From: Candidatus Poribacteria bacterium
GTDB taxonomy: Bacteria > Poribacteria > WGA-4E > WGA-3G
Assembly (NCBI GenBank): GCA_026706025.1
Contig: JAPOZO010000020.1
Coordinates: 111,064 to 175,063, forward strand
Direction of reading: 5' to 3'
DNA length: 64,000 nt
How positions within the stretch are numbered: position 1 is the first letter of the stretch; each line of letters starts with the position of its first letter. The notes under the pieces are model-generated. The model did no database searches. It was given only the letters and a program-made list of their open reading frames with translations, and was not told where the DNA came from. This document shows, in pieces, positions 5,341 through 41,965 of the stretch. The translations under genes and the position numbers were made by a program.

Positions 5341-5537
5341 AACGGATAATCTATCACAAACACTGCAATCTGTCAAGTTCAGATGATAACTAATTATTCT
5401 TACGATTTCTCCGAGATTATGCACCTTTTTCGCTGATAAATTGTTTCATTAATAATAGGACTTACGCAAATCCCTTGTGGGTGTCAATCCACAAATTCCA
5501 GATTTTTTTCAAATTATGCGAATTTTCAGCCCAAAGT

Positions 5538-5572
5538 TTCGTCTTTAATAATAGAGGGTATGAACCGTATCG
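5538..5572 (+). promoter_or_regulatory. Shared upstream element of the ECF-fusion operons, copy 1
   Basis: TTCGTCTTTAATAATAGAGG at the 5' end followed by a GTATCG-type 3' end. It is nearly identical to 9566-9599, which stands before the second sigma-fusion gene. Weaker similarity continues downstream (CAAGATT boxes near 5590 and 9622). It ends 58 bp before the ATG. It could be an autoregulated ECF promoter with a conserved leader; the -35 and -10 cannot be assigned with certainty. Confidence 0.55.
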
Positions 5573-5630
5573 GACCGCGTAATTTTACAAGATTCGGTCA
5601 CGACCCAACTGTTCTTTAGGAGGGCACTTC

Positions 5631-7835
5631 ATGGAAAAAGAAAGCGATGTTCAACTCATTCAGAGAATATTATCGGGTGATGAAGCGGCGTTTGGTGTTT
5701 TGGTCGACAAGCACCAGAGAAGTGTCCACGCCCTTGCGTGGCGGAAGGTCGGCGATTTCCACGATGCCGAGGAGATTACACAGGACACGTTCCTTCAGGT
5801 GTACAAAAAACTACCGACACTTAAAGACCCTTATAAATTTGCTGGATGGTTGTATGTCATCGCAAACCGGCTCTGCATTGATTGGATACGGAAGAAAAAT
5901 CTTGCGATACAATCGCTGGAGGACACATCTGTGGAAGAAATTGAGAAAGCCTCTTATACCCATCACGTATCGGAGCAGTCGGAAATAACTATCTCTGAAC
6001 GTCGCCGTGAGATCGTCAAAAAACTTCTCGCAAAACTACCAGAGAGTGAGCGGACAGTCATGACGCTCCATTACCTCGGCGAAATGACCGTCAAAGAAAT
6101 TAGCAAGTTCTTGGGGGTCTCAGTCAGTGCGATTCAGAACCGACTGTATCGGGCACGAAAACGGTTAAAAGCGAAAGAAGAATCCCTCGTTCAAGAAGTT
6201 CTCGGTAGTGTGCAGATACCGGCAAGTATCAAACAAAACATCATGCGGCGGGTCGCCGACATAAAACTTACACCGTCTCCAACTCCAAAACCGTTGCTCC
6301 CATGGGTCGCTTTCGGCACCGCCGTGGTTTTGGTTGCCTTATTGCTCGGTGTCAGCAATCAACATCTCATCCGTTTTCAGAGACCCTATAGTTTTGAGGC
6401 AGCCTCTGAACCTACCATTGAGATCGTTGATACCGATATCGTTCTTGATATTGTGTCAAAACCTGCTGTGCGAAATCAGGTGGGACGTGCGACGCTTACT
6501 CGTAAAACCAATGGTGCCAGTACACAAGTTTCTCACACAGGGTCAACGCCCAACACATTAAAAAATTCACGAAGGCAGCTGTCGGTCATGGAAAAAGTCC
6601 AAACGCGTAGCCTGCCTTCCGTTACGGCACCTTGGACAGAATGGTTCGTCAATAAGCATCATCTGTCCCCTGCAGAAATGACGGTATCTCACGATATGTT
6701 TTGGAGTCCTGAGTTTGGATTACGCTTTCAAAGAACAGATGAAGGTGTTTCACTTGTCGGGGATTGGATAGAAGCACGCAGACAACAGGAAGCGTTGCTT
6801 GATTTAAATCCGAATACGATACTCCTATGTGAGGTGAATATGCGAGGGGCTGATCCTGGGTCACCCTTTTTGAAAGAACTTTATAGCAGTGATGATTTCC
6901 CCTGGATCACAGACGCATCTGGCGAAATCATTCTTGGGGTACCTGCGGAGCAATATACAGATTTACTCATAGATTTTACACACCCCATCGCCCAAGATAT
7001 TATTGTTGATCAAGCCATCGCTGTTGCTGAAAGTGGGTTATGGGATGGTATCCTTTTCGGTTACTGGGATGAAAAAGAGGTCGTACTTGAAGGTTATCGT
7101 TCTTATGCGGCAGAACAGAAGGCTCGAGAATCCATACTTAAACGTATTCGTAATGCTGTCGAAGACGATTTTCTGATAATTGTTGGCGGTACAGGTCAGT
7201 TGAGTTTTGGGACGCCTTATGTCAACGGTATTATCCTGTACAGCGACCATCAAGACTTTAGTAATGATCAACGGACGGGACTTATTGAACTCGAAAGTAA
7301 CCTGCTCTGGGCGGAAGAAAACCTACGTGAACCGAGAATCAATTATTTGCAAGCTAAAGGTGTTGCCAGTGAATTGCCATTGAACCCAACAAACCAGCAG
7401 GCAATGCGTTGTTTTACAACCCTTTCTCTGACGCATTCTGATGGATATTTTCTTTATACTATGGGTGTTGACTGGGGAGAACCGCACCGGCACGATGATT
7501 TTTATTGGAATTATCCTCACAAACATACGGATTGGGATTATTGGAACCAACATACAAATTCGCACGACACTTTTCTGCACGCGCATGGAGGTGTCCATTA
7601 TTGGTATGACTTTTGGGATGCCGACCTCGGACATCCCATTGGGAAGAAGGGGCGGTTGTACCTGAACCGGGACGGCTTATTCATCCGAGAATTCACCAAG
7701 GGATGGGTAATTTACAACCGCAGTGGGAAAGCACAGAAGATCCAACTACCAGCATTTGCGACCGGTGTCGCCAGTGGTATCATTGGCACATCACACACCG
7801 TCCCAGATTTAGACGGTGAGATTTATTTGAAGTAG
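5631..7835 (+). CDS. ECF sigma factor fused through a membrane segment to a glycosidase-like ectodomain
   Basis: A 734-residue fusion. Residues 1-90 are sigma-70 region 2 (DAEEITQDTFLQVYK, WLYVIANRLCIDWIRKK). Residues 125-185 are region 4 with a helix-turn-helix (VKEISKFLGVSVSAIQ). Residues 221-242 form one hydrophobic segment (LLPWVAFGTAVVLVALLLGV) after a basic stretch, predicting sigma inside and the rest outside. Residues 320-734 are a TIM-barrel-like domain shared with the four following genes, reminiscent of the hypothetical glycosyl hydrolase (GHL) families. Three positions conserved in the secreted paralogs are changed here: Asp to Gly477, Asn to Gly519, Glu to Tyr537. A His-rich insert lies near residues 620-660. 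Start ATG follows AGGAGGG. No anti-sigma gene is adjacent. Inferred role: membrane-tethered, substrate-responsive sigma factor. Confidence 0.9.
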   Translation: MEKESDVQLIQRILSGDEAAFGVLVDKHQRSVHALAWRKVGDFHDAEEITQDTFLQVYKKLPTLKDPYKFAGWLYVIANRLCIDWIRKKNLAIQSLEDTSVEEIEKASYTHHVSEQSEITISERRREIVKKLLAKLPESERTVMTLHYLGEMTVKEISKFLGVSVSAIQNRLYRARKRLKAKEESLVQEVLGSVQIPASIKQNIMRRVADIKLTPSPTPKPLLPWVAFGTAVVLVALLLGVSNQHLIRFQRPYSFEAASEPTIEIVDTDIVLDIVSKPAVRNQVGRATLTRKTNGASTQVSHTGSTPNTLKNSRRQLSVMEKVQTRSLPSVTAPWTEWFVNKHHLSPAEMTVSHDMFWSPEFGLRFQRTDEGVSLVGDWIEARRQQEALLDLNPNTILLCEVNMRGADPGSPFLKELYSSDDFPWITDASGEIILGVPAEQYTDLLIDFTHPIAQDIIVDQAIAVAESGLWDGILFGYWDEKEVVLEGYRSYAAEQKARESILKRIRNAVEDDFLIIVGGTGQLSFGTPYVNGIILYSDHQDFSNDQRTGLIELESNLLWAEENLREPRINYLQAKGVASELPLNPTNQQAMRCFTTLSLTHSDGYFLYTMGVDWGEPHRHDDFYWNYPHKHTDWDYWNQHTNSHDTFLHAHGGVHYWYDFWDADLGHPIGKKGRLYLNRDGLFIREFTKGWVIYNRSGKAQKIQLPAFATGVASGIIGTSHTVPDLDGEIYLK

Positions 7836-7904
7836 GTTTCATCACCAACCGATGTCAACGGTGATGGTGTTGATAATAAATTAAAAAGGATTAACGATGC
7901 ATAA
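7836..7904 (+). pseudogene. In-frame dockerin remnant after the first sigma-fusion stop
   Basis: Reading on in the same frame past the TAG at 7833-7835 gives VSSPT, then DVNGDGVDNK (7851-7880), the start of a dockerin calcium loop, then unrelated residues and TAA at 7902. The secreted paralogs have a complete two-loop dockerin at this place without the stop. Most simply a decayed dockerin; stop readthrough is possible but unproven. Confidence 0.7.
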
Positions 7905-9387
7905 AATAAAGTCTATTTTACTATTTATGATGCTTGGGTTTTTTTCCCTTTCTTCAACGCCTGCTGAAGAAGCGAAACTGTCGGTAATAGAACGGCTGAA
8001 TGCGAGAAATTTCCCCTCACTTTTCGCGGCGTGGGCTGGGTGTCACTATATACCACCGGACGCAAATTGGACTGAAAGGCGACACGATTTGGTGTGGGGG
8101 CACCGTATCCCAGAAGGACGGTTTGAAAAAATTGATGGCAAGATTGTCCTCACTGGGGATGTTGAGGCTGCAAGAGAAAGGTGGTCAGAACACCGTCGGT
8201 ATAACCCGAATATGATATTCCTCATGGATATTCCTTTCTCCGTTGCCCCACTCGAGGGTAGCAAAAACACATTATTTGGAGAAATTTTTCCAGATGATTG
8301 GCCTTTCATGATAATCCACGAAACAGGTGAGGAAGTTTTAGGGTTTACAGGTGATCACGTAAACCCACAGTCACGACTCATAGATTTCACACATATAGAG
8401 GCACAAAAAGTGATTGTCGGGATGGCGAAAGCCGTAGATGATAGTGAATTCTTTGACGGCATCTTTATTGATTGGTGGGATGAAACAGGTTTGACATTAG
8501 ATGGTTACAGAACACTTGAGGAAGAATTTGAAGCACGTATACATATCCTGCAATCTATTCGGGATGTTGTGAGCGATGATTTTCTGATCGTTGTCAATTC
8601 AAATCATGAAGGCGCAAAGTATTCTGCCCCCTATATTAATGGTGTGTTCACGGAGACGTTTCGTCATGCAATGCCTGATGACTTTGAACATCTTTCTATG
8701 CTGTGGCTTGAGGAGGGTTTCCGCTGGGTTGAATCAGAGTGTCGCTTCCCACAGATACCGTGTTTTGAAGCAGAAGGAATTGGGATTCAATCCCCGATGA
8801 GTCCTGAAAACCTACAGGCTATGCGGTGCTTAACAGCGTTGTATTTGACGCATTCGGACGGATTTTTTACTTACACGATGGGCGTTAATTTACGTGATAG
8901 ACAGAATCACGTACATGATAGTCATTGGGTTGGTGGGCCTGACCATGATGACCTACACGCAAGAAGCATTGTTCATGAGCACCATCACGAGCATTACTGT
9001 TACGATTTTTGGTATGCCGACTTGGGTCGTCCGATAGGAGAGAAATTTCAACGTTATGAGGATAGAGAAGGTCTGTTTATCCGTGAGTTCACTAACGGCT
9101 GGGCAGTCTATAATCGGAGCGGAGAAGAGCAGATTGTCAAGCTTCCCGTCAAATCAAGTGGCGTAGAAAGCCGGATTACCGCTATTGAACACACTATTCC
9201 TGATTTAGATGGCGAGATTTTTTTGAAAACCCTCATCGTGGCGGCGGATGTCAATGGTGATGGCGTGGTGAATGTCTTGGATCTCGTGATAGTCGCTAAC
9301 GCTTTTGGTGAATCCGAACCGGATCTGAATGGCGATGGGATAGTCAACGTCTTGGATCTCGTGATAGTCGCGAATGCGTTTGAGTAA
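7897..9387 (+). CDS. Secreted glycosidase-like protein with C-terminal type I dockerin
   Basis: A 496-residue exported paralog of the preceding ectodomain. Signal peptide at residues 1-23 ([16 protein letters not shown]). Residues 28-440 are the TIM-barrel-like domain with the intact candidate active-site positions Asp192 (DGIFIDWW), Asn234 (VVNSN) and Glu253 (NGVFTETF). A His-rich loop (HEHHHEHY) sits near residue 360. The last 50 residues are two dockerin calcium loops ([10 protein letters not shown] and [10 protein letters not shown]), which in cellulosome-like systems bind cohesins; no cohesin gene is in the window. Like its sigma-fused neighbour it has no leucine-rich repeats. It begins 61 bp after the sigma fusion and probably shares its transcript. 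Confidence 0.88.
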
Positions 9388-9456
9388 GAAACCAGAAATC
9401 ATAGGAGACACCTCTTCGGAACTGACAAAGTTCAAACAACACCCGCATTTTTGTTA

Positions 9457-9490
9457 GACGAGGTCATCGTGCCTCGTCTTTTCTCCTTTT
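9457..9490 (+). terminator. Intrinsic terminator of the first sigma/glycosidase operon
   Basis: GACGAGG-TCATCGTG-CCTCGTC gives a 7-bp GC-rich stem with an 8-nt loop, followed by TTTTCTCCTTTTT. It lies 70 bp past the dockerin gene and before the second upstream element, separating two operons. Confidence 0.8.
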
Positions 9491-9565
9491 TGCAAGTAGA
9501 AAACCCGCCTATATTCCTCATAAATTTACATTTTTTGCTTTTTATGCAGTTTTTCTGCTCGTAAA

Positions 9566-9599
9566 TTCGTCTTTAATAATAGAGGGGATAACTGTATCG
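9566..9599 (+). promoter_or_regulatory. Shared upstream element of the ECF-fusion operons, copy 2
   Basis: Begins with the same TTCGTCTTTAATAATAGAGG as 5538-5557 and ends with ACTGTATCG against ACCGTATCG. Upstream flanks also match loosely (TTATGC and a T-rich run). It ends 86 bp before the TTG start chosen for the second sigma fusion. Confidence 0.55.
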
Positions 9600-9685
9600 T
9601 ATTTCTTAATGCTGCAATCTTCAAGATTTGATTCAGTTTTTAGCAAATATGAACACACCGCAATTTGTTCGTTGGGAGAGGAATC

Positions 9686-12358
9686 TTGGAAAGAGTAGAC
9701 GATGTTCAACTGATTCGTAGGGTTTTATCGGGTGACGACGCAGCGTTTAATACTTTGGTTGAAAAGTATGAAAAAGGCGTTCACGCCCTCGCGTGGCGGA
9801 AGGTTGGTGATTTTCACGATGCTGAAGATATTACGCAAGATGCCTTTCTCCAAGCGTACAAAAAACTCGCGACACTCAAAAATCCGCATCAATTTGTGGG
9901 GTGGCTATATGTCATTACAAATAATCTATGCACCGATTGGCTCCGAAAGAAGAAACCTGCGATGCGATCGCTGGAGGAGATGTCTGTGAAAGAAATAGAC
10001 GATGTAACCTATGCGCGTTATGTGGCGGAACACCGTGAGTCAGAAGCGACTGAACGTCGCCATGAAATTGTCAAAAAACTTCTTGAAAAGCTGCCAGAGA
10101 GCGAACGCACGGTCGTAACCCTTTACTATCTCGGTGAAATGACGATGAAGGAGATTAGCAAGTTCTTAGGGGTCTCTGTCAAAACGATAAGTAGTCGTCT
10201 GCATCGGGCGCGCAAACGTTTAAAACAGCAAGAAGATCTCTTTGTCCAAGAGTTTCTCGGCGGTGTACAGTTATCAGCGAATGTAAGACCGAACATTATG
10301 CGGCGAATCGCTGACATTAACCCGACACCGACCGCAGCTGGAAAACCGTTGCTCCCATGGGCAGCTGTCGGTACTGCCGTGGTTTTGGTTGCGTTATTGC
10401 TCGGTGTGAGCAATCAACACCTCCTCCGTTTTCAGAGACCCTATAGTTTCGAGGCTGCATCTGAACCGACAGTCGAAATTATTGAGGCACCTATTGTGCT
10501 TGATATCGCCATAAAACCGGCCGTACGAAATCAGATCGGGCGGACCGTCGCCAGTGAAACTCGCGGTGCTGGCTTGCAAGCTGCTGACCGGGATTCAACG
10601 CCCAGTGCCGCGGAGGATTCACTCAGCGTTTCGGAGGCGCATTGGATGCCGGATCCCGCACTGCGACAGGCGATTCGCGAAAAACTTGATATTCCGTCAG
10701 ATGTCCCTTTGACCGAAGCATATCTTCAACGACGCTTGACAAGCCTTGATGTGCGAGGCAAAGAGATTGCCGATCTTACAGGTATAGAGCATGCGACCGA
10801 TTTGCAGGCACTTGTTCTGATAGAGAACAAGATTCACGATATATCACCTTTGTCCGGTCTAACGGAACTCGGTTTTCTTGATCTGGGAGGCAACCAGATT
10901 TCAGACCTCCGCCCGCTCGCAGCACTCACGCGTTTAGAGACTTTACACATTTGGCGGAACGAAATAGAAAATATTTCGCCACTCACTGGGTTAGTCAATC
11001 TGAAAAAGTTGTCAATACAGAATAACGATATTAGGGATTTTTCACCCCTCAATGGGTTGTGTCACTTAGAGGTTGTAAAAATTAAAGGCAATTTTCGGGT
11101 CGGCGATTATATACCGAGGGTTGCAGTAGCACCGCGTATCAAAGAGAGAGATTACCCGTCAATCTTTGCAGCGTGGGCGGGGAACAATATTCTCAACTTA
11201 CCAAACTTATCTGATGATGAAGCCGTCACACATCACGATCTGTTTTGGGGTGGACCGGGGTTTCACCTGCAATGGCATCCCACACCTGAAGGAATGCGGC
11301 TCTTTGGCAGAATAGACGATGCGCACTGGAAAAGAGAGTATCTTCTTTCACAAAATCCTAACTTTGTAAGACTTGTGAGTCTTGACTACACGGATGCTAA
11401 TCTTGGGGATTATCCTGAAGATTGGCCGTATTGGATAAGAGATAAGAACGGCAATCGCGTTCGCGTTTACGCTGGTGCTTCAGACTGCCTGATAGACTTT
11501 ACACACCCTGTCGTTCAGGATATTCTCGTTCAGAAAGCCGTTGCTGTAGCAAAATGTGGTCTCTACGACGGTATCTTCTTGGGGCGGTGGCAGGAAGATG
11601 AGGCTACGCTTAATAATGACCAAGGTGTTTATTATCGAAGTGTTGAAGCCGAGGGGGCGGCAAGAGTCTCTATGGTACGCCGTATCCGTGAGTTTGTTGG
11701 TGACGATTTTCTGATTATCGTCAAAACGAACCAGCGTCCAGCACCCCTTTCGGCACCCTACGTTAATGGGATGTTCATGGAAGCGATTCTGGACGAACAG
11801 GACACAGGTTACACGCATGCTGGACTCCGTGAAATTGAAAGCACGTTATTATGGTCGGAGCAGAATTTTCGTGAACCACAAATAAATGCGCTTGAAGGGC
11901 GTGGCATATCGCTTGAGCCACCAGATTCCCCGCGTAACCAGCAAAGGATGCGCCTCATTACAACCCTGAGTCTCACACATTCCGATGGCTACGTTTGTTA
12001 CAACATCGGGGTAATGGGCATCATCCATGAACATGAATACGAGATCTGGCCAGGACATGAGAGGGCGCATATAGAAGGCAAATCGCATCTTCACAACCAC
12101 CAACACTATTGGTATCCATTTTGGGATGCCCCATTGGGTCGCCCTGTGGGCAAGAAGGCGCAACTTTATCATAATAGTCAGGGACATAGGGTTGAGGGTT
12201 TATTTATACGTGAGTTCACCAATGGTTGGGCGGTCTACAATCGCAGCGGAAAGGCACGGGATATACAACTCCCCATGCAAGCCACTGGTGTCGCAAGCGG
12301 GACTATTGGTGTTAATCACACCCTCTCTGATTTAGACGGTGAGATTTATCTGAAATAG
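9686..12358 (+). CDS. ECF sigma factor - membrane segment - LRR - glycosidase-like fusion
   Basis: An 890-residue fusion. I place the start at TTG 9686, preceded by GGGAGAGG, because the protein then aligns residue for residue with the first sigma fusion through the membrane segment; another TTG lies 21 bp upstream. Sigma region 2 spans 1-90, region 4 spans 125-185, the membrane segment 221-242. A linker leads to WMPDPALRQAI and about five internalin-like leucine-rich repeats (345-475). Residues 480-890 are the barrel domain. Candidate active-site positions are Gly633 (Asp in secreted paralogs), Lys680 (Asn) and Glu699 (kept). It has a His-rich insert (HEHEYE, HLHNHQHYW). It differs from the first fusion by the LRR block, which the two secreted genes downstream also have. 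Confidence 0.9.
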   Translation: MERVDDVQLIRRVLSGDDAAFNTLVEKYEKGVHALAWRKVGDFHDAEDITQDAFLQAYKKLATLKNPHQFVGWLYVITNNLCTDWLRKKKPAMRSLEEMSVKEIDDVTYARYVAEHRESEATERRHEIVKKLLEKLPESERTVVTLYYLGEMTMKEISKFLGVSVKTISSRLHRARKRLKQQEDLFVQEFLGGVQLSANVRPNIMRRIADINPTPTAAGKPLLPWAAVGTAVVLVALLLGVSNQHLLRFQRPYSFEAASEPTVEIIEAPIVLDIAIKPAVRNQIGRTVASETRGAGLQAADRDSTPSAAEDSLSVSEAHWMPDPALRQAIREKLDIPSDVPLTEAYLQRRLTSLDVRGKEIADLTGIEHATDLQALVLIENKIHDISPLSGLTELGFLDLGGNQISDLRPLAALTRLETLHIWRNEIENISPLTGLVNLKKLSIQNNDIRDFSPLNGLCHLEVVKIKGNFRVGDYIPRVAVAPRIKERDYPSIFAAWAGNNILNLPNLSDDEAVTHHDLFWGGPGFHLQWHPTPEGMRLFGRIDDAHWKREYLLSQNPNFVRLVSLDYTDANLGDYPEDWPYWIRDKNGNRVRVYAGASDCLIDFTHPVVQDILVQKAVAVAKCGLYDGIFLGRWQEDEATLNNDQGVYYRSVEAEGAARVSMVRRIREFVGDDFLIIVKTNQRPAPLSAPYVNGMFMEAILDEQDTGYTHAGLREIESTLLWSEQNFREPQINALEGRGISLEPPDSPRNQQRMRLITTLSLTHSDGYVCYNIGVMGIIHEHEYEIWPGHERAHIEGKSHLHNHQHYWYPFWDAPLGRPVGKKAQLYHNSQGHRVEGLFIREFTNGWAVYNRSGKARDIQLPMQATGVASGTIGVNHTLSDLDGEIYLK

Positions 12359-12439
12359 GAAACCGGTTCATCTGTGGATGTCAATGGTGATGGTGTCGTG
12401 AATATACAGGATTTAGTTATTGTGGCGAATGCGTTTTGA
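12359..12439 (+). pseudogene. In-frame half dockerin after the second sigma-fusion stop
   Basis: Continuing the same frame past the TAG at 12356-12358 encodes ETGSSV, then a full single dockerin calcium loop and helix ([20 protein letters not shown]), ending at TGA 12437-12439. It lacks a start and a ribosome-binding site of its own. The sequence is undamaged, unlike the remnant after the first fusion. Confidence 0.75.
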
Positions 12440-12455
12440 ATAAGGAGATTCGCTG

Positions 12456-14480
12456 ATGACAATAAAAGAAAAATTGTGTAAATCGTTAGGGCTTCAGTTT
12501 TTGCTTTTATCCGTTATGGGCATATTTGTCTATAACACTTTTGCCTACGCAGAAAATGAAGAAGAGTGGATGCCGGATCCTGCACTCCGAGAGGCTGTCC
12601 GGGAAAAACTTGGTGTTCCCGCAGATACCCCCTTGACACAGGCGTATGTTCAACTACGCCTAACAAGTCTTCGGGCTATAAATAAGGGGATTGTTGATCT
12701 TACCGGCTTAGAGCATGCAACTGATTTGCAGTTCCTTGTTCTGCCACAGAACAAGATCAGCGATTTATCTCCTTTGTCAGGCCTAACAGGACTTGTTTTT
12801 TTGGATTTAGGAACCAACGAAATTACAGACCTATCACCGCTTGCGGGGTTAGAAAGTCTTGAATTGCTGGGATTGTCGAATAACCAAATCGTAGATGTTT
12901 CGCCGCTTGCGGGATTGGTGAACCTAAAAAAGCTTTCACTTGTTAGCAATCAGATTCCAGACCTATCGCCGCTTGTGGGATTAGAGAATCTTGAAAATCT
13001 TGAGATCTATGGCAATACAAAGAATTTGCTTTCCACGCTTCCCCTATCAAAGCTGATGCAATTCGGATACGATGAAACCTGTGACTTAGAGGGTGTCCCG
13101 ATCCCTGAGCGAGTTGAGAATCGCGAATATCCCTCAATTTTCGGAGCATTCGGGGGAGGGATAATCATCAACTTACCAGAGCTAACATGGAGGGAAGCCT
13201 GGGCATATCATGACCTGACCTGGAGTGGCCTGCTGTTTAATTCCACGATGTGGCTTTCAACATCTGAAGGTCTAAAACACTTGGTGCATATTGAAACCGC
13301 CAGGAAACAGCGGGATGACCTACTTTCTCGCAACCCGAACATGATTTTTATTGTTGCGATGAACTATTGGGCTGCAAACCCCGGTGAGTATCCAGACGAT
13401 TGGCCCTATTGGGCACGAGACGAATTGGGGAATATAATTCAGGCGGAGGATCATGGGACACTTCTTATTGACTTCACATACCCTGGATATCAAGACTATA
13501 TGGTGAGACGAGCGGTTGCGCTTGCGAAATGCGGACTCTTTGATGGCATTTTTTTCGATGTGTGGCGAGATGATTGGCGCAACAGGGAGATGGCTCCCTA
13601 CTATACTTATGATGTCCACGAAGCAGCGATTACAATGCTTCGGCGGATCCGCGAGGGAGTTGATGAAGTCAGAGACGACTTTCTGATCATTGTCAACACC
13701 AATCGCTCCAAGATCCCACGTTCGGCACCCTACGTAAATGGAACTTTCATGGAAACTATAGACCCTTATTCTCATGCAGGTCTGGCAGAGATTGAAAGCA
13801 CCTTGCTCTGGGCAGAGCAGAATCTTCGGGAGCCCCAGATCAATTGTTTAGAGGGTTGGGCAGATAAAACAGAGCCGCTTGACAGTCCAAGAAACCAACA
13901 ATGGATGCGACTTTTTACAACAATGGGTCTAACGCATTCAGACGGCTATGTGAATTTCGTCAGCGGAATCTTATCTCCAGAACATGAGCATCTTTCTGAT
14001 ATATGGAAAGAACACTCGAAAACACACGATCGAGGCATAAAACATTCGCATCTCCATGACCATATTTGGGATAACTTCTATGACGCTCCGTTGGGTCTTC
14101 CAGTCGGCGGCGATGAAACGAAGGGTCAACTTTACGAGAACCGAGAAGGTTTATTCATCCGAGAGTTCACCAACGGTTGGGCGGTGTATAATCGCAGTGG
14201 CACGGAACAGCAGATTGAGTTCTCTGAAGCGGTGTCCGGCGTTGAAAGTGGTGTGAAGGAGAAACACTCGCACGTGCTACCTGACTTAGATGGTGAGATT
14301 TATCTGAAATCAGAATCAGGGTTAGAAACCGCTCCTACCGTGGATGTCAACGGCGATGGCGTTGTGAATATCCAAGATTTAGTGATAGTCGCGAATGCGC
14401 TTGGCGAAACGGAGCCCGATCTCAATGGCGATGGTGTTGTGAATATACAAGATTTAGTGATTGTAGCAAATGCATTTTGA
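12456..14480 (+). CDS. Secreted LRR and glycosidase-like protein with C-terminal dockerin
   Basis: A 674-residue paralog with a signal peptide (FLLLSVMGIFVYNTFAYA, ending near residue 32) in place of sigma and membrane segment. WMPDPALREAV leads into leucine-rich repeats at about 80-195 (repeating DLSPLxGL units). Residues 215-620 are the barrel domain with Asp368 (DGIFFDVW), Asn414 (IVNTN) and Glu433 (NGTFMET) intact. A His-rich insert (SHLHDH) precedes the FYDAPLG strand. Residues 625-674 form a two-loop dockerin. RBS AAGGAG lies just upstream. Same LRR-plus-barrel layout as the sigma fusion before it, so likely its target or partner. Confidence 0.88.
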   Translation: MTIKEKLCKSLGLQFLLLSVMGIFVYNTFAYAENEEEWMPDPALREAVREKLGVPADTPLTQAYVQLRLTSLRAINKGIVDLTGLEHATDLQFLVLPQNKISDLSPLSGLTGLVFLDLGTNEITDLSPLAGLESLELLGLSNNQIVDVSPLAGLVNLKKLSLVSNQIPDLSPLVGLENLENLEIYGNTKNLLSTLPLSKLMQFGYDETCDLEGVPIPERVENREYPSIFGAFGGGIIINLPELTWREAWAYHDLTWSGLLFNSTMWLSTSEGLKHLVHIETARKQRDDLLSRNPNMIFIVAMNYWAANPGEYPDDWPYWARDELGNIIQAEDHGTLLIDFTYPGYQDYMVRRAVALAKCGLFDGIFFDVWRDDWRNREMAPYYTYDVHEAAITMLRRIREGVDEVRDDFLIIVNTNRSKIPRSAPYVNGTFMETIDPYSHAGLAEIESTLLWAEQNLREPQINCLEGWADKTEPLDSPRNQQWMRLFTTMGLTHSDGYVNFVSGILSPEHEHLSDIWKEHSKTHDRGIKHSHLHDHIWDNFYDAPLGLPVGGDETKGQLYENREGLFIREFTNGWAVYNRSGTEQQIEFSEAVSGVESGVKEKHSHVLPDLDGEIYLKSESGLETAPTVDVNGDGVVNIQDLVIVANALGETEPDLNGDGVVNIQDLVIVANAF

Positions 14481-14496
14481 GTCAGGAGATTATCCT

Positions 14497-16545
14497 ATGA
14501 CAATGAAAAAGATATTGTGTAAATCGTTATGTCTTCAGTTAACATTCATATCTGTTATGGGTATGTTTGTCTACAATGCTTCCATCTATGCCGAAGCTGC
14601 TGAGGCGTGGATGCCGGATCCGATTCTCCGAATGGCAGTTCGTCAGGAACTGAAAATAGATGCTGATACACCCTTGACGAAAGCGGATATGTCTCGATTG
14701 CTTGTGTTGGCATCAAATAGAGTGGACATAACCGCAGAGCTCAGTGATCTAACCGGTTTGGAGTATGCTGTAAACCTTCACTCTCTTCTTCTTTGGGATC
14801 ATCGTGTGCGGGACCTGCGTCCGATTGCGGATTTGACGAACCTCAGATTCCTTGGTTTCAACAGGGGTCCGATTTCAGATATAACGCCTCTTGCAGGTCT
14901 TGTGAACCTTGAGACGCTAACTATATGGGGCAACCAGATTGTCGATGTTTCACCGCTTGCGAACTTGGTAAACCTAAGGGTGCTCAAGCTTGCCTTCAAT
15001 CAGATTGAAGATTTCTCACCGCTTGCGGAGTTGGTGAACCTCGAATGGCTCGAAATCCAGCACAACAGGAGTAGCGATATTTCTGAGATTCCAACAGCAA
15101 AGTTGACAGAGTTCGTATACGATGAAACGTGTAACGTCCCGGGTATCCCTTTTGCTGACCGCATTGAAAATCGTGAATATCCATCCGTCTTCGGATCCTG
15201 GGCTTACGTTCCTAATAAGCTGCCAGTCATACTAAGACCAGAGACCTCCGAGATTACGCCGATGGCTTATTTCGATCTCCATTTCGGTTCACCTCAAACG
15301 CTTCAGCTCGAATGGGCATTTAATCAACCCGGTAGTGGCGAACGGGTCCGATTAATAGCAGCAGGCACAGCCAATATTGAGGATGCCAAGCAACGCCGAA
15401 AGGCGATCTTGGCGTTTAATCCAAACGCAATATTGCTTGTGCCGATTCGATATTACAGTGGACTGCCTGCCCAGCTGTATCCTGAAGATGGTGTTTTGCG
15501 AGATCTCTATCTTCGAGACAAAAATGGAAACCGTATTATAGGAGGAGATGGTGAAGTTGCGTTTTTAGATTTCACACTCCCTGAGACCCAAGAATTCGTT
15601 TTCGATCAAGTGCGAGCTATCAAAGCGTGTGGGCTGTTTGATGGCATCTTTTTTGATCATTGGAGCGGAGGGGCAGGACTCTTGGAATCCCGGACAGGTC
15701 GCACACAAGCAGAAGGATATATCGCCCGAGACCGTATTATACAAGGGGCGCGTGCCATCATAGGGGACGATATGTTAATAATGGTAAACACCGGTGAAAG
15801 CAAGATTCCGAGATGGGCAGAATATATCAACGGTGCTTTCATAGAAACACACCCTATGAGGGTGGAGGAAATTGAAGGTGTGCCTGTTCATCTCGGTTAT
15901 ACGCTGGCAAACCTTTTGGATATTGAGGACACCTTGGTCTGGTCGGAATCTAATTTTCGCGAGCCGCGTATCAACAGTTTAAACGCGTTCACTATTGATA
16001 CAGAACCCCCAGATTCTCCTCGCAACAAGCAGTGGATGCGCACTTTCACAACCATGAGTCTAACGCTTTCTGATGGCTATGTTAACTATCTCACGCTATT
16101 CGGTAAGTATGGTCCCGAGGTTTACTGGCACCCTTTCTATGATGCTCCGTTGGGTCGCCCTATTGGTGAAAAGGGGCAACCCTACAAAAATGGAGAACGT
16201 GTTGCTATCGAAGGCGTATTTATCCGTGAGTATACCAACGGCTGGGCGGTGTATAATCGCTCTGGTAAGGAGCAGCAGATTGAACTTCCAGAGAATGTAT
16301 CAGGCGTTGCCAGCGGTGTGGAAGACCAACGCTCACATACCCTCCCAGATTTAGATGGCGAAATTTATCTGAAATCAGAATCAGGGTTAGAAACCCCTCC
16401 CATAGTAGATGTCAATGGCGATGGGACAGTGAATATCCAAGACTTAGTGATAGTTGCGAATGCGCTTGGTGAAGCGGAGCCCGATCTCAATGGTGATGGT
16501 GTTGTGAATATACAGGATTTAGTGATAGTCGCAAACGCTTTTTGA
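14497..16545 (+). CDS. Secreted LRR and glycosidase-like protein with C-terminal dockerin (second copy)
   Basis: A 682-residue protein. The ATG at 14497 is chosen over one at 14470 because it has AGGAG 8 nt upstream and matches the paralog N-terminus (MTMKKILCKSL); the gap to the previous gene is 16 bp. Signal peptide to about residue 32, leucine-rich repeats at 85-195, barrel domain 225-630 with Asp387 (DGIFFDHW), Asn431 (MVNTG) and Glu450 (NGAFIET) intact, and a two-loop dockerin at the C-terminus. Unlike the other four family members it lacks the His-rich insert. It is the most diverged barrel of the set. Confidence 0.88.
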   Translation: MTMKKILCKSLCLQLTFISVMGMFVYNASIYAEAAEAWMPDPILRMAVRQELKIDADTPLTKADMSRLLVLASNRVDITAELSDLTGLEYAVNLHSLLLWDHRVRDLRPIADLTNLRFLGFNRGPISDITPLAGLVNLETLTIWGNQIVDVSPLANLVNLRVLKLAFNQIEDFSPLAELVNLEWLEIQHNRSSDISEIPTAKLTEFVYDETCNVPGIPFADRIENREYPSVFGSWAYVPNKLPVILRPETSEITPMAYFDLHFGSPQTLQLEWAFNQPGSGERVRLIAAGTANIEDAKQRRKAILAFNPNAILLVPIRYYSGLPAQLYPEDGVLRDLYLRDKNGNRIIGGDGEVAFLDFTLPETQEFVFDQVRAIKACGLFDGIFFDHWSGGAGLLESRTGRTQAEGYIARDRIIQGARAIIGDDMLIMVNTGESKIPRWAEYINGAFIETHPMRVEEIEGVPVHLGYTLANLLDIEDTLVWSESNFREPRINSLNAFTIDTEPPDSPRNKQWMRTFTTMSLTLSDGYVNYLTLFGKYGPEVYWHPFYDAPLGRPIGEKGQPYKNGERVAIEGVFIREYTNGWAVYNRSGKEQQIELPENVSGVASGVEDQRSHTLPDLDGEIYLKSESGLETPPIVDVNGDGTVNIQDLVIVANALGEAEPDLNGDGVVNIQDLVIVANAF

Positions 16546-19017: not shown

Positions 19018-19265
19018 CCCGTAGGTTGGGTTGAACGGATACCCTCAAATCCCTGAAAAGGCAGAGAAACATGCAACCGCTCCATCCACCTACATTCAAC
19101 AGAAACCCAGAGAAACCCAACGTCTCGGTTTCCGATGCCATTACCAGCACAGTATGAAGTTGGGTTTCGCTGCATCCTTGTGTGGATATGATGCCATCTC
19201 GGATTTCACGTGTATTTGGAACACCTACATCCGCCTTTTCTGTTCCGCTCTACCCAACCTACGGG
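19018..19265. repeat. 248-bp element with 14-bp perfect terminal inverted repeats
   Basis: Begins CCCGTAGGTTGGGT (19018-19031) and ends ACCCAACCTACGGG (19252-19265), exact reverse complements. An inner inverted pair (GAAACCCAAC near 19110, GTTGGGTTTC near 19163) suggests nested palindromes. No transposase or convincing ORF is inside. Directly downstream are two short related stretches with TGTGGTCGCGA. Probably a non-autonomous mobile or repetitive element. Confidence 0.6.
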
Positions 19266-19337
19266 GCCCTGTGGTCGCGATTCATTGGTGGATTTTTCTT
19301 GTAGGAGCGATCTGTGGTCGCGACATTTACTGACAAC

Positions 19338-19440
19338 TATAGTGAATCCTAAAAATAAAGAGACACTTCATCCCCCCGGTAGGTTCGGTTTCCTAACCGA
19401 ACCGGTGCGGAGTGTCCTATTAATTCTAAACTTTACTATA
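19338..19440. mobile_element. MITE-like element, copy A
   Basis: 103 bp running from TATAGTGAATCCTAAAAAT to CTTTACTATA. The outer 30 bp of each end are imperfect inverted repeats, and the centre has a perfect stem (GGTTCGGTT-TCCT-AACCGAACC). Same termini as the elements at 24518 and 52988. It sits directly upstream of the LamG gene promoter region. Confidence 0.7.
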
Positions 19441-19449
19441 AAAAAATGC

Positions 19450-19479
19450 TTGACATTTGATACAAATGTGTGTCAAAAT
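19450..19479 (+). promoter_or_regulatory. Possible promoter of the LamG protein gene
   Basis: TTGACA (19450-19455) is a perfect -35. A weak CAAAAT -10 (19474-19479) with an upstream TGT follows at 18 bp. The RBS GGAGG at 19497 precedes the ATG. Confidence 0.4.
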
Positions 19480-19509
19480 CCAAAGCAAATAATCTTGGAG
19501 GTAATACAG

Positions 19510-20349
19510 ATGAGAGGTAGATATCAAAAACCGAGCATTTTCTGGTCTGTTATAGGTGCTGCCGTCCTGCTGTTTACCACGCAAGGACACACCGCAATTG
19601 ACCCCGCCACGGCAGTAGCCGTCTGGCTCTTCAACGAGGATGGCGGCGATCTCGCCAAGGACTTAACGGAAAACGCGCTCGATGCGGAGTTCTTAGACCC
19701 TGTGAAGTGGACGGATGGCAAATTCGACGGTGGATTGGAATTCAAAAGTGGTGGATTGGTTAACGCTGGCACTTCACCGCTCCTGAACGTCGGCAAAGCA
19801 AATTTTTCTATGTTAGCATGGTTCAAGTATTCTAAAACCGCCGACGATTGGCACGCAACTATTATCGAAAAGGCTGATTTCGCTATGCCGAGGCACGGCT
19901 ACCTCTTGTGCGTTCGCGGGAATCTTGATCCGAATAACAAAGGAAAACCGCTGTTTTGGTTTGGATTGGCACAAGGGGCAGGCGTTCATCTCTTTGGAAC
20001 ATCGCCTATCAACGATGGGAAATGGTACCATCTCGCTGCAACTGCTGACCGAAAGGGTGCCATGAAATTGTACCGTGATGGAAAACTGGAGGCTGAAAAA
20101 GATATTTCCGCGCAGCAAAAAGAGAATGAAGATAACCATAAACCCTTTACTATTGGGGGTGAAGCCGGTGTTGCCTCCCGAAGTCTTGTGGATGGAGCAA
20201 TAGATGAAGCGGCACTCTTCAACGTTGTGTTGACTGAGGATCAGATAACAGAAATTGCCGAAAAAGGGCTTGCGCGGACGTTGGGAGCAGAGGCGGTTTC
20301 ACCAAATGATAAATTGGCTACCACCTGGGCGAAAATAAAAAGGAAATAA
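19510..20349 (+). CDS. Secreted LamG / concanavalin A-like domain protein
   Basis: A 279-residue protein. The ATG at 19510 is chosen because it follows GGAGG by 8 nt and starts a signal peptide (FWSVIGAAVLLFTTQGHTA). Residues 35-255 match the LamG-type jelly-roll fold: VAVWLFNEDGG, FSMLAWFKY, KWYHLAATADRKGAMKLYRDGK and the closing GAIDEAALFNVVLTEDQI. These domains bind glycans or act as structural modules; no enzyme motif is seen. The longer open frame starting at 19210 runs through repeat DNA and is not credible. Confidence 0.85.
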   Translation: MRGRYQKPSIFWSVIGAAVLLFTTQGHTAIDPATAVAVWLFNEDGGDLAKDLTENALDAEFLDPVKWTDGKFDGGLEFKSGGLVNAGTSPLLNVGKANFSMLAWFKYSKTADDWHATIIEKADFAMPRHGYLLCVRGNLDPNNKGKPLFWFGLAQGAGVHLFGTSPINDGKWYHLAATADRKGAMKLYRDGKLEAEKDISAQQKENEDNHKPFTIGGEAGVASRSLVDGAIDEAALFNVVLTEDQITEIAEKGLARTLGAEAVSPNDKLATTWAKIKRK

Positions 20350-37296: not shown

Positions 37297-38772
37297 ATGC
37301 TTTGGACGCTGATTCGACATGAACTCTTAATGAATTTAATGACGTTCCGTTTCTTGGTTGCGGTTATCGCGGCTATGGCACTGGTGCTGGCGGGGAGCAT
37401 CGTCTTAACGGACAATTATGAACGGAGACTCGCGAGTTACAATGAAGATTTCCAGAGGCACCAAGAAGGGAACTTTAGCGGAAAAACGTATTCCTCTTTC
37501 AGGCCGGATCTTGACAGAGCACCCAATCCACTGAGCCTCTTTAATCAAGGACTTGACAAACGCTCGAAAAACTCGCTCCAAATCAGAATTGGAGAGATCC
37601 CCTTTTTATGGGGTAATGTCAGCCGTAATACAGGGTTCAGCAATCCTTTCCGATACCTACTCGCCGATATAGATCTGGTCTCTATTTTCCAAATCCTTTT
37701 CAGCCTCCTCGCGCTGGTTTTCGCATACGATGCAATCGCTGGCGACCGCGAGAACGGTACGTTACGTCTAATCCTTGTCAATCCCGTTGGACGCGGATTA
37801 ATTGTATTGGCAAAGTATCTGGGTGCCATGCTCTGCCTTACACTACCGCTGTTAATGAGTTTTCTGTTGACACTACTGCTCCAACTGCAATCTAATGCTA
37901 TCCATTATGGTGCCGACGACTTTCTTCGGATTGGCGGTATTTTTCTCACAACAGTCATCTATACCTCCACGTTTTATCTTATCGGATTGTTTATCTCCAG
38001 CCTGATTCACCGCACAGCAACATCCCTTATCGTATCAATGTTTATTTGGGTGGTGTTGACACTGCTTTATCCGAATGTGAGCCTGTTCCTCGTCAACCGC
38101 TTCATTGATACGGAGGAGAGAGTAAAGCAAGCGGATCAAGCAATTGACCAAGTTTTGGAACAATTCTATTGGAATGAAGTAGTGCCTGGGGACCCATTTG
38201 AGAACCCACCATTACTAAAGGACAGTAAATCAAGTGGTGGGAGTTCCAGTTACACACATCTAAAGAAAGATATTACGTTCATTCCAGATGCGTCGGAAGT
38301 CCATGTTCCAACGGTTAAAGCCTATTTTCAAGAACTAACATCTGGACGGATTCGGACTGCTAACAAAGTCTGGCAAATACGAGAGACAACCTTTGCTGAA
38401 ACCTATATTCGTAAATCAAATATTGCTCGAAACGTGCTTCGATTTTCCCCCGCAGGCTTATATCACCTCTCAACAGAGGCGTGGGCTGGGACGGGTCTCG
38501 CGAGAATGCAAGACTTTTTTAAAGCGGGACGACAGTATAGAGAAACAATATTGGACTATTTCTACGATAAAAAGGCATTCAGTTCACGGCAATGGTTTGC
38601 GAGCGACAGAGGAGCCGTCCGCTGGGACGATGCCCCACGGTTCTCTTATCAACCGCCGAGTGTGTTTAAAGATGCCAGTAACCGCGCCCTCCGCGACCTA
38701 CTTCTACTTTTCACTCTGAATCCAATACTACTTATGATAACCTTCGCGGTTTTCAGTCGGCAGGAGATCTGA
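37297..38772 (+). CDS. ABC-2 family permease, type A, copy 1
   Basis: A 491-residue inner-membrane protein. One membrane segment near the N-terminus (FLVAVIAAMALVLAGSIVL) is followed by a large external region, then four to five segments between about 125 and 275. The block FAYDAIAGDRENGTLRLILVNPVGRG is the ABC-2 permease signature. A second soluble stretch (280-460) and a last segment follow. It ends 1 bp before the type B permease gene. No ATPase gene is in the cluster. The transported substrate is unknown. Confidence 0.82.
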   Translation: MLWTLIRHELLMNLMTFRFLVAVIAAMALVLAGSIVLTDNYERRLASYNEDFQRHQEGNFSGKTYSSFRPDLDRAPNPLSLFNQGLDKRSKNSLQIRIGEIPFLWGNVSRNTGFSNPFRYLLADIDLVSIFQILFSLLALVFAYDAIAGDRENGTLRLILVNPVGRGLIVLAKYLGAMLCLTLPLLMSFLLTLLLQLQSNAIHYGADDFLRIGGIFLTTVIYTSTFYLIGLFISSLIHRTATSLIVSMFIWVVLTLLYPNVSLFLVNRFIDTEERVKQADQAIDQVLEQFYWNEVVPGDPFENPPLLKDSKSSGGSSSYTHLKKDITFIPDASEVHVPTVKAYFQELTSGRIRTANKVWQIRETTFAETYIRKSNIARNVLRFSPAGLYHLSTEAWAGTGLARMQDFFKAGRQYRETILDYFYDKKAFSSRQWFASDRGAVRWDDAPRFSYQPPSVFKDASNRALRDLLLLFTLNPILLMITFAVFSRQEI

Positions 38773-38773
38773 G

Positions 38774-40201
38774 ATGCTTTGGCATGTTGTGAAACGAGAA
38801 TTGTTTGAGCAAGTCAATAGCCTCCGTTTTGCACTCGCTATGCTGCTCACTGTTTTTTTAATGCTCGTCAACGCCGTCGGGCACATTGACGAATATAGAA
38901 CACGACAAGCGGAATATGGGCAGCAGGTTTCAGCGTACTCGGCGAGACTTGAAGGGAATAGTAATAATCTTTACAAACTCGTTTTAAACGGTCCCGGCGA
39001 ACTTCACAAGAAGCCTTCACCCCTCTTTTTCTGCGCGCACGGCAGTGAAAATAATCTGCCGAAATTTGCATCAGGGGAGCGCGCTGGATGGGGAACGATC
39101 TATAACGTCTCTGGTATCTGGCGATTAAAATATAGTGGATTTCCATCCATAAAAGCGAAAGATATTTTCCCGGTGTTCCTAAAAATTGACTGGATCCTCA
39201 TCATCTCCAATGTCCTGAGTTTTCTCGCCCTCGTTTGGACGTTTGACGCGATTTCTGGTGAAGTAGAACACGGCACCCTCCGATTGACGTTATCTAACTC
39301 TATTGCGCGTCGAACGGTACTTACCGGTAAATTCTTAAGCTGTCTCATAAGTCTCGGTGCTGTTTTTATGAGCGGTGTGTTGGTTAACCTCCTGTTACTT
39401 CACCTCTCTGGAACCCTCCAACTCAATGCCCAAGAATGGAGCAGAATCGGTGGTATTTTCGTTGTCGGTTTAATGTATATCGCTGTCTTTATCGCCTTAG
39501 GGTTTCTCATATCCACGCTCGTTAACAACGCCTCAACAAGCCTTGTAATTCTACTGCTGATATGGGTAATTTGGGTTATTCTCGTGCCGTCAATGCTTGG
39601 GACAATTATGAGTGGGCTGAACCAGCCATCAATCCGCCGGGGGCCGAGTCCGGTATATTTCAGACGTAGTGGACTCCAAGAACGCTATAGAGCACGCGGA
39701 TTAGAAGACGAAGCACCCACCCGTGAACGTCCACCGACACCCGCAACACTGCTCTGGGCTGAGTTTCTAAATGAGGAGGCAAGAGAAGGCGCGAGATTGC
39801 ACAGAGCCTACTTAAACGCACAGGTAAACCAGATTCAGATTGCCAGAGAGTTCAATCGTATCTCGCCGACAGCAATTGCACAATATGCCATTGAATCCTT
39901 GGCAGGAACGGGGTTCCAAAGACATTTGGATTTCTTGAAAAACGCCGAGCGTTATGCCGACGCATTCAACGATTTTCTCATCGCTGCCGACCGCGCGGAT
40001 CCAGACAGCCTACACGTTCCTTTCGTCAGAGAGGGCATGTCCGATAAACCCGTCTCCTTTGAAAGCATTCCCAAATTTCAAGACAGCGTACGTTTAGGGG
40101 AAGCGTTCAAAGGCGCGATGTTAGACGTGATGCTATTGTTGCTCTTTTTTACGGCGTTATTTGCGGCGGCACACGTCTCCTTCCAGCGCAAAGAGATATG
40201 A
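38774..40201 (+). CDS. ABC-2 family permease, type B, copy 1
   Basis: A 475-residue membrane protein with the same plan as its neighbour: an N-terminal segment (FALAMLLTVFLMLVNAVG), a periplasmic domain, then FTFD-type block VWTFDAISGEVEHGTLRLTLSN and further segments. RBS AGGAG overlaps the end of the previous gene. Types A and B are diverged from each other and likely form a heterodimeric channel. Its last 120 residues are almost identical to those of copy 2. Confidence 0.82.
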   Translation: MLWHVVKRELFEQVNSLRFALAMLLTVFLMLVNAVGHIDEYRTRQAEYGQQVSAYSARLEGNSNNLYKLVLNGPGELHKKPSPLFFCAHGSENNLPKFASGERAGWGTIYNVSGIWRLKYSGFPSIKAKDIFPVFLKIDWILIISNVLSFLALVWTFDAISGEVEHGTLRLTLSNSIARRTVLTGKFLSCLISLGAVFMSGVLVNLLLLHLSGTLQLNAQEWSRIGGIFVVGLMYIAVFIALGFLISTLVNNASTSLVILLLIWVIWVILVPSMLGTIMSGLNQPSIRRGPSPVYFRRSGLQERYRARGLEDEAPTRERPPTPATLLWAEFLNEEAREGARLHRAYLNAQVNQIQIAREFNRISPTAIAQYAIESLAGTGFQRHLDFLKNAERYADAFNDFLIAADRADPDSLHVPFVREGMSDKPVSFESIPKFQDSVRLGEAFKGAMLDVMLLLLFFTALFAAAHVSFQRKEI

Positions 40202-41964: not shown

Positions 41965-41965
41965 G

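What the first reader, a model, noticed from the sequence alone, without database searches (positions are those of the whole stretch)
5538..16545. Two operons of membrane-tethered ECF sigma factors fused to a glycosidase-like ectodomain, each followed by matching secreted paralogs
Seen: five tandem genes share one barrel domain. Two carry an intact N-terminal ECF sigma factor and one membrane segment; three carry a signal peptide and dockerin instead. Architectures match within operons: operon 1 (5631-9387) has no LRR in either gene, operon 2 (9686-16545) has LRR in all three. Known: the clostridial SigI/RsgI system uses a separate anti-sigma factor with a glycan-binding ectodomain. Inference: here sensor and sigma are one chain, probably released by proteolysis, and each drives its own set of secreted enzymes. 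No anti-sigma gene is adjacent.
Basis: partly seen in the sequence, partly recalled or inferred. Interest (0 to 1): 0.93.

Follow-up and report, generated by a model that had tools for sequence, protein, structure and literature searches.

The report
Sigma factors with dead-enzyme sensors
In Poribacteria, gene-switch proteins (sigma factors) with a predicted membrane anchor are fused to copies of predicted sugar-cutting enzymes, often encoded right beside them, and most of these fused copies have lost the predicted cutting residues, so they likely serve as outside sensors that would switch on the working enzymes.

Summary
The anatomy is confirmed. Two ECF sigma factors each carry one predicted membrane helix and a GHL15/GH168-like barrel, and are followed by secreted dockerin-bearing paralogs. 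Such fusions occur in 26 of 38 genomes of this Poribacteria genus, including one-contig genomes.

The main finding is new. The fused barrel is an altered copy of the secreted enzyme. The Asp and Glu that align with the GH168 nucleophile and acid/base are both intact in 5 of 38 fused barrels but 101 of 104 unfused ones. The rest of the fold is kept, and dN/dS is 0.18-0.34. On a supported tree, fused and unfused barrels interchange eight times, and loss of the dyad follows fusion. No fused ORF (0 of 42) has a dockerin, yet an in-frame dockerin remnant follows the stop of both window fusions.

Sigma fusions to an M61 peptidase, an S9 peptidase and three TlpA-like domains in this genome also lack catalytic residues; two other sigma-enzyme fusions are intact.

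I read these as single-chain receptors with a pseudoenzyme sensor. Sensing, proteolytic release and autoregulation are inferred. The rule that operons keep matching LRR layouts does not generalise (17 of 31 pairs), and a shared promoter motif argues against separate regulons.

The parts
5517..5557 (+). ECF-type promoter-like element of operon 1: TGCGAATTTT, 12 nt, TCGTCTTTAATAATAGAGG
   Evidence: kept in other species. Function not tested
5631..7835 (+). Operon 1 fusion: ECF sigma (aa 24-180), predicted TM helix (nt about 6291-6380), barrel (aa 323-734)
7059..7061 (+). Gly477 at the predicted catalytic Asp position; the predicted acid/base Glu position is Tyr537 (7239-7241)
7836..7895 (+). In-frame dockerin-like remnant (VSSPTDVNGDGVDN...) directly after the fusion's stop codon
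7897..9387 (+). Secreted barrel-dockerin paralog; Asp192 and Glu253 kept
9545..9585 (+). ECF-type promoter-like element of operon 2: TGCAGTTTTT, 12 nt, TCGTCTTTAATAATAGAGG
9665..12358 (+). Operon 2 fusion: ECF sigma, predicted TM helix (nt about 10346-10435), LRR, barrel (aa 491-897)
11582..11584 (+). Gly640 at the predicted catalytic Asp position; the predicted acid/base Glu706 (11780-11782) is kept
12359..12439 (+). In-frame half-dockerin remnant directly after the fusion's stop codon
12456..14480 (+). Secreted LRR-barrel-dockerin paralog; Asp368 and Glu433 kept
   Evidence: barrel modelled
14470..16545 (+). Secreted LRR-barrel-dockerin paralog; Asp396 and Glu459 kept

Best explanation
The two window genes encode ECF sigma factors whose predicted outside part is a copy of the neighbouring secreted GH168/GHL15-like glycosidase that has lost its predicted catalytic aspartate, and this dead copy likely works as a substrate sensor that would release or activate the sigma to transcribe the operon of live enzymes. 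Shown by sequence: one chain of sigma, hydrophobic helix and barrel; eroded catalytic dyad on an otherwise conserved fold; dockerin remnants after the stop codon; a shared promoter-like motif upstream. Inferred: membrane topology with sigma inside and barrel outside, binding of a sulfated-fucan-like glycan without cleaving it, release of the sigma (probably by intramembrane proteolysis), and transcription of its own operon. The live secreted enzymes would destroy the ligand and switch the system off.
For: Dyad intact in 5 of 38 full-length fused barrels against 101 of 104 unfused. Among 63 columns at least 93% conserved in unfused barrels, only three fall below 0.5 in fused ones: the Asp (0.99 to 0.26), the Glu (0.99 to 0.47) and an N-terminal Cys (0.94 to 0.18); most others stay at or near 1.00. 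The Asp and Glu align with residues of MeGH168 (PDB 9nhf) spaced like Asp167 and Glu237, its predicted nucleophile and acid/base (PMC12210190, passages and section 3.2). FunA mutants D206E and E264Q are inactive (PMC7401878 passages); Gln stands at the Glu position in 7 of 38 fused barrels. AF2 model of the secreted barrel (pLDDT 90.7): of the 17 best Foldseek hits 15 are named GH168, endo-1,3-fucanase or PbFucA and two are an unnamed planctomycete protein; Asp and Glu sit at the ends of strands 146-149 and 211-215. Careful tree of 96 of the 142 rows without the two columns: 8 fused/unfused changes, all forced by supported branches; in 8 independent pairs loss goes with fusion in 6.6, against it in 0.1, no difference in 1.3; median p 0.016, range 0.008-0.22. 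dN/dS of 10 fused pairs 0.18-0.34. Dockerin pattern in 0 of 42 fused against 74 of 106 complete unfused ORFs; in-frame pattern at or after the stop in 10 of 40 fused genes, other five frames 0, 5, 0, 0, 0. Motif score at least 15 of 19 upstream of 20 of 41 fusions, 0 of 820 shuffles. Other sigma-enzyme fusions without catalytic residues: M61 motif lost in 23 of 24, S9 Ser to Gly in 11 of 11 against 0 of 19 free, TlpA-like Cys lost in 3 of 3.
Against: Five of 38 fused barrels keep both residues (6 of 41 if short rows are counted). Two own-genome sigma-enzyme fusions are intact: transglutaminase L023:12683 and M61 L023:6480. Only 20 of 39 fusions have an unfused barrel in the same run of genes, one of these (L119) being a piece of the fusion itself; others are followed by LRR/cytochrome or other proteins. 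One unfused barrel outside the genus has also lost the Asp (L328). The sign-test range reaches 0.22. M61 and S9 are each mainly one ortholog group, so they add few independent events. The 19-mer searched came from the window, and the general promoter consensus was drawn from the same sequences it was scored on; the two window fusions score only 15 with it, under the 16 used there. No ligand, topology, cleavage or transcription was tested; TM calls are by hydropathy only.
Confidence: 0.6

Rival explanations
1. Passive anchor: after fusion the barrel no longer needed to cut and is kept only as a folded outside domain. The sigma is controlled otherwise or acts from the membrane, and catalysis was lost by relaxed selection rather than to make a sensor.
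For: The replacements are diverse (G, N, S, A, R at Asp; Q, Y, K and others at Glu), as expected of loss without a required substitute. Five fused copies keep both residues.
Against: dN/dS 0.18-0.34 and near-complete conservation of the other conserved columns, including W, N, R and H, suggest that the cleft is still selected. Eight fused/unfused changes on the tree suggest that the domain's specificity matters.
Confidence: 0.2
2. Product or partner sensing: the dead barrel recognises the secreted paralog, a cohesin/dockerin complex or hydrolysis products rather than the polymer, and reports on export or activity of the enzyme set.
For: LRR domains, common protein-binding modules, are shared by fusion and secreted copies of operon 2. 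One relative's operon encodes a cohesin protein.
Against: Conservation is of the enzyme fold, and no dockerin is left in any of 42 fusions.
Confidence: 0.13
3. Artefact or decaying gene: the fusions are assembly chimeras or pseudogenes on the way out.
For: Some relatives have interrupted copies (G001/L077, G015/L119, G008), and C52 holds a sigma-less remnant of an operon 1 type fusion.
Against: Long intact frames in many genomes including one-contig genomes, purifying selection, conserved promoter-like motif.
Confidence: 0.02

Closest known systems
SigI/RsgI of Clostridium thermocellum
   Same: Carbohydrate-sensing ectodomain on one TM helix controlling an alternative sigma that makes dockerin-bearing enzymes (PMC12203970 passages). 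[quoted passage not shown] that RsgI5/RsgI6 carry GH5/GH10 and that the GH10 is active is recalled.
   Different: There the anti-sigma is a separate protein and the sigma is of the SigI group. Here sigma and sensor are one chain, no anti-sigma domain was found, and the enzyme-like sensor has lost predicted catalytic residues.
ECF52 (SCO4117, Streptomyces) and ECF48/ECF53
   Same: ECF sigma with C-terminal TM region and, in SCO4117, a carbohydrate-binding outside domain; proteolytic activation proposed (PMC5826349 passages; PMC8999054 section 3.5 part 1).
   Different: ECF52 is reported as Actinobacteria-only, has a zinc-finger domain and a proline-rich stretch. Here no zinc finger is matched, and the outside domain is a copy of an enzyme encoded next to it.
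IutY (ECF243, Pseudomonas putida)
   Same: Single-chain membrane sigma activated by Prc and RseP proteolysis (PMC8999054 section 3.5 part 1).
   Different: IutY is fused to an anti-sigma of a siderophore signalling system; here no such domain is matched.
BlaR1/MecR1 and yeast Gal3/Gal1 (recalled, no call)
   Same: A sensor derived from the enzyme it induces, with impaired catalysis.
   Different: Different protein families and outputs; neither is a sigma factor.
GH168 endo-fucanases (Pfam GHL15)
   Same: Fold and catalytic Asp/Glu positions of the secreted copies.
   Different: Sequence identity to the 17 best solved hits is low (11-18%); activity and substrate are unknown; most fused copies lack the dyad.

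Membership tests
ECF sigma factors | Regions 2 and 4 matched; superfamily model above cut-off | tested here: met
   PF04542, PF08281; TIGR02937 111.5 and 118.7 bits against 42.9
SigI/RsgI | Separate RsgI anti-sigma gene beside the sigma gene | tested here: not met
   Neighbours are the barrel genes and nine flanking genes such as sulfatase, glycerate kinase and TonB receptor
ECF52 | Zinc-finger domain between sigma and TM; Actinobacteria only | tested here: not met
   No zinc finger in Pfam at E<=0.1; about 40 aa linker; relatives are Candidatus Poribacteria
ECF243 (IutY) | C-terminal fused anti-sigma of the iron cell-surface signalling type | tested here: not met
   No such domain in Pfam at E<=0.1 or among the 25 best NCBIfam hits shown
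GH168/GHL15 | TIM barrel related to solved GH168 enzymes | tested here: met
   Profile E 2.9e-12 to 8rg5 and 1.9e-9 to 9nhf; Foldseek E 2e-15 to 8rg3 and 1.1e-14 to 9nhf
GH168/GHL15 | Catalytic Asp and Glu (window's three secreted copies) | tested here: met
   Asp and Glu present in all three
GH168/GHL15 | Catalytic Asp and Glu (window's two fused copies) | tested here: not met
   Gly in both at Asp; Tyr at Glu in one, Glu kept in the other
GH168/GHL15 | Hydrolysis of sulfated fucan | not testable with these tools
   No assay possible
Cellulosome-type complexes | Dockerin partner cohesin in the same genome | tested here: inconclusive
   Cohesin found in one relative's operon protein (L111); not searched in the window's genome

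The most novel reading that the evidence does not exclude
Poribacteria have turned enzymes into receptors many times over: an ECF sigma with its own membrane anchor repeatedly captured copies of neighbouring enzymes, lost the dockerin, killed the active site and kept the cleft, giving a genome-wide set of single-chain sigma-pseudoenzyme receptors (glycosidase, M61, S9, TlpA-like), each sensing the substrate of the live paralog that it switches on.
Probability: 0.5. Interest if true: 0.92.

Novelty: new variant of a known kind. Interest (0 to 1): 0.82.

Why it matters
If right, one protein does the work of receptor, anti-sigma and sigma, and the sensor's specificity comes ready-made from the enzyme it controls. 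Repeated capture followed by loss of catalysis offers a natural experiment on how enzymes become receptors. It would also let the ectodomains of the sigma fusions (54 in the stretches taken from this genome) tell what these bacteria sense, and gives a design for substrate-gated promoters in laboratory strains.

Tried and rejected
Assembly chimera: rejected. Strict match of LRR layout within operons: rejected as a rule (17 of 31 pairs; one pair is L119's own fragment). Separate regulons for the two sigmas: not supported, because the same 18-mer stands before both (5 exact genome hits and 1 with a mismatch, 0 for the reversed pattern). Sigma-PurC, sigma-DnaN and sigma-FtsZ frames looked like more dead-enzyme sensors. 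PurC is 89% identical to the free copy with no obvious loss, and all three have a Met inside the frame where the second protein starts, so they are left apart. FtsZ was recognised by eye from its motif (recalled), PurC and DnaN by Pfam. Sigma70 promoter and terminator scans gave numbers near the shuffles. The second AF2 job, pdb_via, the protein-database searches and the virus, phage and plasmid collections were not used.

Dropped rows. One search used 142 of 164 distinct barrels: 4 fused rows under 330 residues (L085, L086, L119, L129) and 18 unfused rows, 16 short and two known fusion pieces (L077 and L160, unfused by ORF, Asp lost). One search used 96 of those 142 (all 38 fused, 58 of 104 unfused; three long-branch rows left out on purpose). 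In one search, of 26 M61 rows labelled fused I set aside L022:13045 (not M61) and L271 (motif not covered). Of 22 unlabelled rows, nine reach the HE of the motif and keep it (three cover all of HExxH; two of the nine are the same gene), eight end before it, and five lacking it (L266_2, L267_4125, L268, L269, L270) look like pieces of fusions and were set aside.

Full report
WHAT IS THERE. The window lies in a 6.27 Mb genome of 103 contigs. Named relatives that carry the fusion are Candidatus Poribacteria. Genes 5631-7835 and 9665-12358 are ECF sigma factors (Sigma70 r2 and r4) followed by a linker of about 40 residues, one hydrophobic helix and a barrel, with an LRR block in the second. Genes 7897, 12456 and 14470 start with a hydrophobic stretch and end in a dockerin. 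A third operon of the same kind is at C31 (L025:2341-11768: sigma-LRR-barrel, then three LRR-barrel proteins with a dockerin-type end). A sigma-less remnant of an operon 1 type fusion is at C52 (L060:7368-8072). The genome has 83 Sigma70_r2 matches; in the stretches I took there are 54 distinct sigma ORFs of at least 380 aa. Pfam on 30 of them shows propeller, LRR, binding-protein and enzyme domains, or nothing beyond sigma.

THE FUSION IS REAL. 42 distinct sigma-barrel fusions are in the fetched loci. By handles and contig lengths they lie in 26 of the 38 genomes of the genus, including one-contig genomes G033, G035 and G036, and in one genome of another genus (G070, L151/L302). A search of 24 genomes of other genera gave 57 listed barrel matches; in the 30 loci returned, only L302 has a sigma in the same frame. 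The sigma-plus-helix N-terminus matches at E<=1e-75 in 38 of 38 genomes of the genus, 20 of 20 others of the family, 4 of 14 others of the order and 0 of 12 beyond it.

WHAT THE BARREL IS. Pfam calls it GHL15. By profile it matches solved GH168-type enzymes (8rg5 E 2.9e-12, 9nhf 1.9e-9). An AF2 model of the secreted barrel (48 sequences, pLDDT 90.7) has as its 17 best Foldseek hits 15 chains named GH168, endo-1,3-fucanase or PbFucA and two chains of an unnamed planctomycete protein. GH168 enzymes cut sulfated fucans (PMC7401878 and PMC12210190, passages). A sulfatase, an enolase-superfamily enzyme and a TonB receptor lie nearby, but the substrate here is a guess.

THE FUSED BARREL IS DEAD BY ITS RESIDUES. 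In own-genome barrels the Asp of the DGIFxDxW motif is replaced in all three fusions (G, G, N) and kept in all 18 others that cover it; the Glu is kept in two of the three fusions. Over relatives, 38 full-length fused barrels keep Asp in 10, Glu in 18 and both in 5; 104 unfused ones keep Asp in 103, Glu in 102 and both in 101. The profile alignment to MeGH168 places the two residues on an Asp and a Glu 70 apart, as are Asp167 and Glu237, its predicted nucleophile and acid/base. Changing D206 or E264 of FunA abolished activity; that these are the equivalents rests on the MeGH168 paper's comparison with Fun168A. Of 63 columns conserved in unfused barrels only those two and an N-terminal Cys fall below half in fused ones. 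Ten fused ortholog pairs have dN/dS 0.18-0.34 and two free pairs 0.16-0.17, so the fused domain is kept, not rotting. One unfused barrel of another genus (L328) also has Gly at the Asp position.

IT HAPPENED REPEATEDLY. On a careful tree of 96 barrels built without the two catalytic columns the fused/unfused label changes eight times, all forced by supported branches; loss of the dyad follows fusion in 6.6 of 8 independent pairs, goes the other way in 0.1 and does not differ in 1.3 (median p 0.016, range 0.008-0.22). A quicker tree of 142 rows gives 8 changes, 7 pairs and median p 0.031. In L131 the fused barrel is sister to an unfused one of the same locus. Where the fused genes came from is still visible. 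A dockerin pattern is in 0 of 42 fused ORFs against 74 of 106 complete unfused ones. Yet in frame at the stop codon a dockerin-like pattern is found in 10 of 40 fused genes with enough sequence, against 0, 5, 0, 0 and 0 in the other five frames. Looking at each: eight of the ten are clear remnants after the stop, both window genes among them; L227's stands just before its stop; L116's lies 41 residues on and is probably chance. Of the five in the other frame, three (L117, L126, L127) stand right after the stop and look like frameshifted remnants.

OTHER ENZYMES. Ten own-genome sigma fusions with a recognisable enzyme domain were found among those examined (PurC, DnaN and FtsZ left apart). Eight lack catalytic residues: three barrels, one M61, one S9 and three AhpC/TlpA-like. 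Two are intact: M61 L023:6480 and transglutaminase L023:12683. Across the genus the sigma-M61 fusion is full length in 24 of 38 genomes, and HExxH is absent in 23 of 24 fused copies examined; the one intact copy is the paralog L023:6480. In the window's genome the gene after the dead M61 fusion is a 65% identical free copy with HEICH. The sigma-S9 fusion occurs in 11 of 38 genomes, with Ser to Gly in 11 of 11 against 0 of 19 free S9. These are mostly single ortholog groups, so they widen the range of enzymes rather than the number of independent events.

PROMOTERS. Upstream of own-genome sigma fusions a TGCAACCTTT-N12/13-GCGTC element scores at least 16 in 25 of 55 against 2.5% of shuffles; the consensus was drawn from the same sequences, and the window fusions score 15. 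I recall -35/-10 elements of this kind as typical for ECF sigmas. The barrel fusions have a special form ending TCGTCTTTAATAATAGAGG: 20 of 41 fusions, the window's two included, score at least 15 of 19, against 0 of 820 shuffles. Both window operons and the C52 barrel cluster share it exactly, the C31 fusion with one mismatch. Autoregulation is likely, and cross-talk too.

OPERONS. In 39 fusions with at least 2300 nt downstream, 20 have an unfused barrel in the same run of genes (19 without L119, whose hit is its own fragment); LRR presence agrees in 17 of 31 pairs. Others are followed by large LRR/cytochrome proteins, one with cohesin and dockerin (L111).

MECHANISM. Sigma in the cytoplasm, a dead enzyme outside. 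The ligand binds and is not cut; the chain is cleaved or rearranged; the sigma transcribes its own operon; live enzymes remove the ligand. The first two steps rest on homology and on the conserved but dead cleft. The proteolytic step rests only on analogy with IutY and RsgI and on two full-length M50 matches in the genome.

NOVELTY. Searches of the held open-licence library listed no paper whose title or abstract start describes Poribacteria sigma fusions or a sigma factor with a pseudoenzyme sensor. The 2021 ECF reclassification paper is not held, and most subscription papers are absent. Fused ECF sigmas as such are known: ECF52, IutY and at least 26 groups with extensions (PMC8999054 section 3.5 part 1).

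Noticed in passing
L012:13529-15070; L013:4839-6569; L017:9690-10901: ECF sigma frames run without a stop into extra copies of housekeeping proteins: PurC (2 copies in the genome, fused one 89% identical to the free one), DnaN (4 copies, fused one about 55% identical to free ones) and a truncated FtsZ (recognised by eye). They could be sensors for drugs that hit those targets, or simple read-through with an internal start.
   Followed up: partly
L022-L024 (C56:35000-78000): Ten sigma-TM fusions with different ectodomains stand close together on one strand of about 43 kb of one contig.
   Followed up: no
window 19210-20349; L040, L043, L045, L048 and others: Many secreted proteins near sigma fusions (the window one is a laminin-G/ConA-like protein) end in a shared C-terminal motif, roughly L(T/A)TTWGxxK. 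It looks like a sorting or processing tag.
   Followed up: no
L060:7071-8072 (C52): Promoter-like motif kept, sigma gone, C-terminal half of an operon 1 type fused barrel left, followed by live-looking secreted barrels: an operon that may now be served in trans.
   Followed up: partly
L173, L175, L176, L178-L180, L182, L184, L185, L197: Barrels about 48-51% identical to the query, all with the dyad intact and no sigma in frame, occur in Chloroflexi metagenome bins, suggesting transfer between phyla or mixed bins.
   Followed up: no
L111:6106-10320: A protein in a sigma-barrel operon combines planctomycete-type cytochrome c, LRR, cohesin, dockerin and FlgD-Ig domains, a possible scaffold for the dockerin-bearing enzymes.
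   Followed up: partly
barrel column 13: A Cys before the barrel is kept in 94% of unfused and 18% of fused copies, perhaps a disulfide tied to the secreted form.
   Followed up: no
window 37297-43399: Two tandem pairs of proteins that by their N-termini resemble the membrane proteins following several helix-less sigma fusions elsewhere in the genome, here without a sigma.
   Followed up: no
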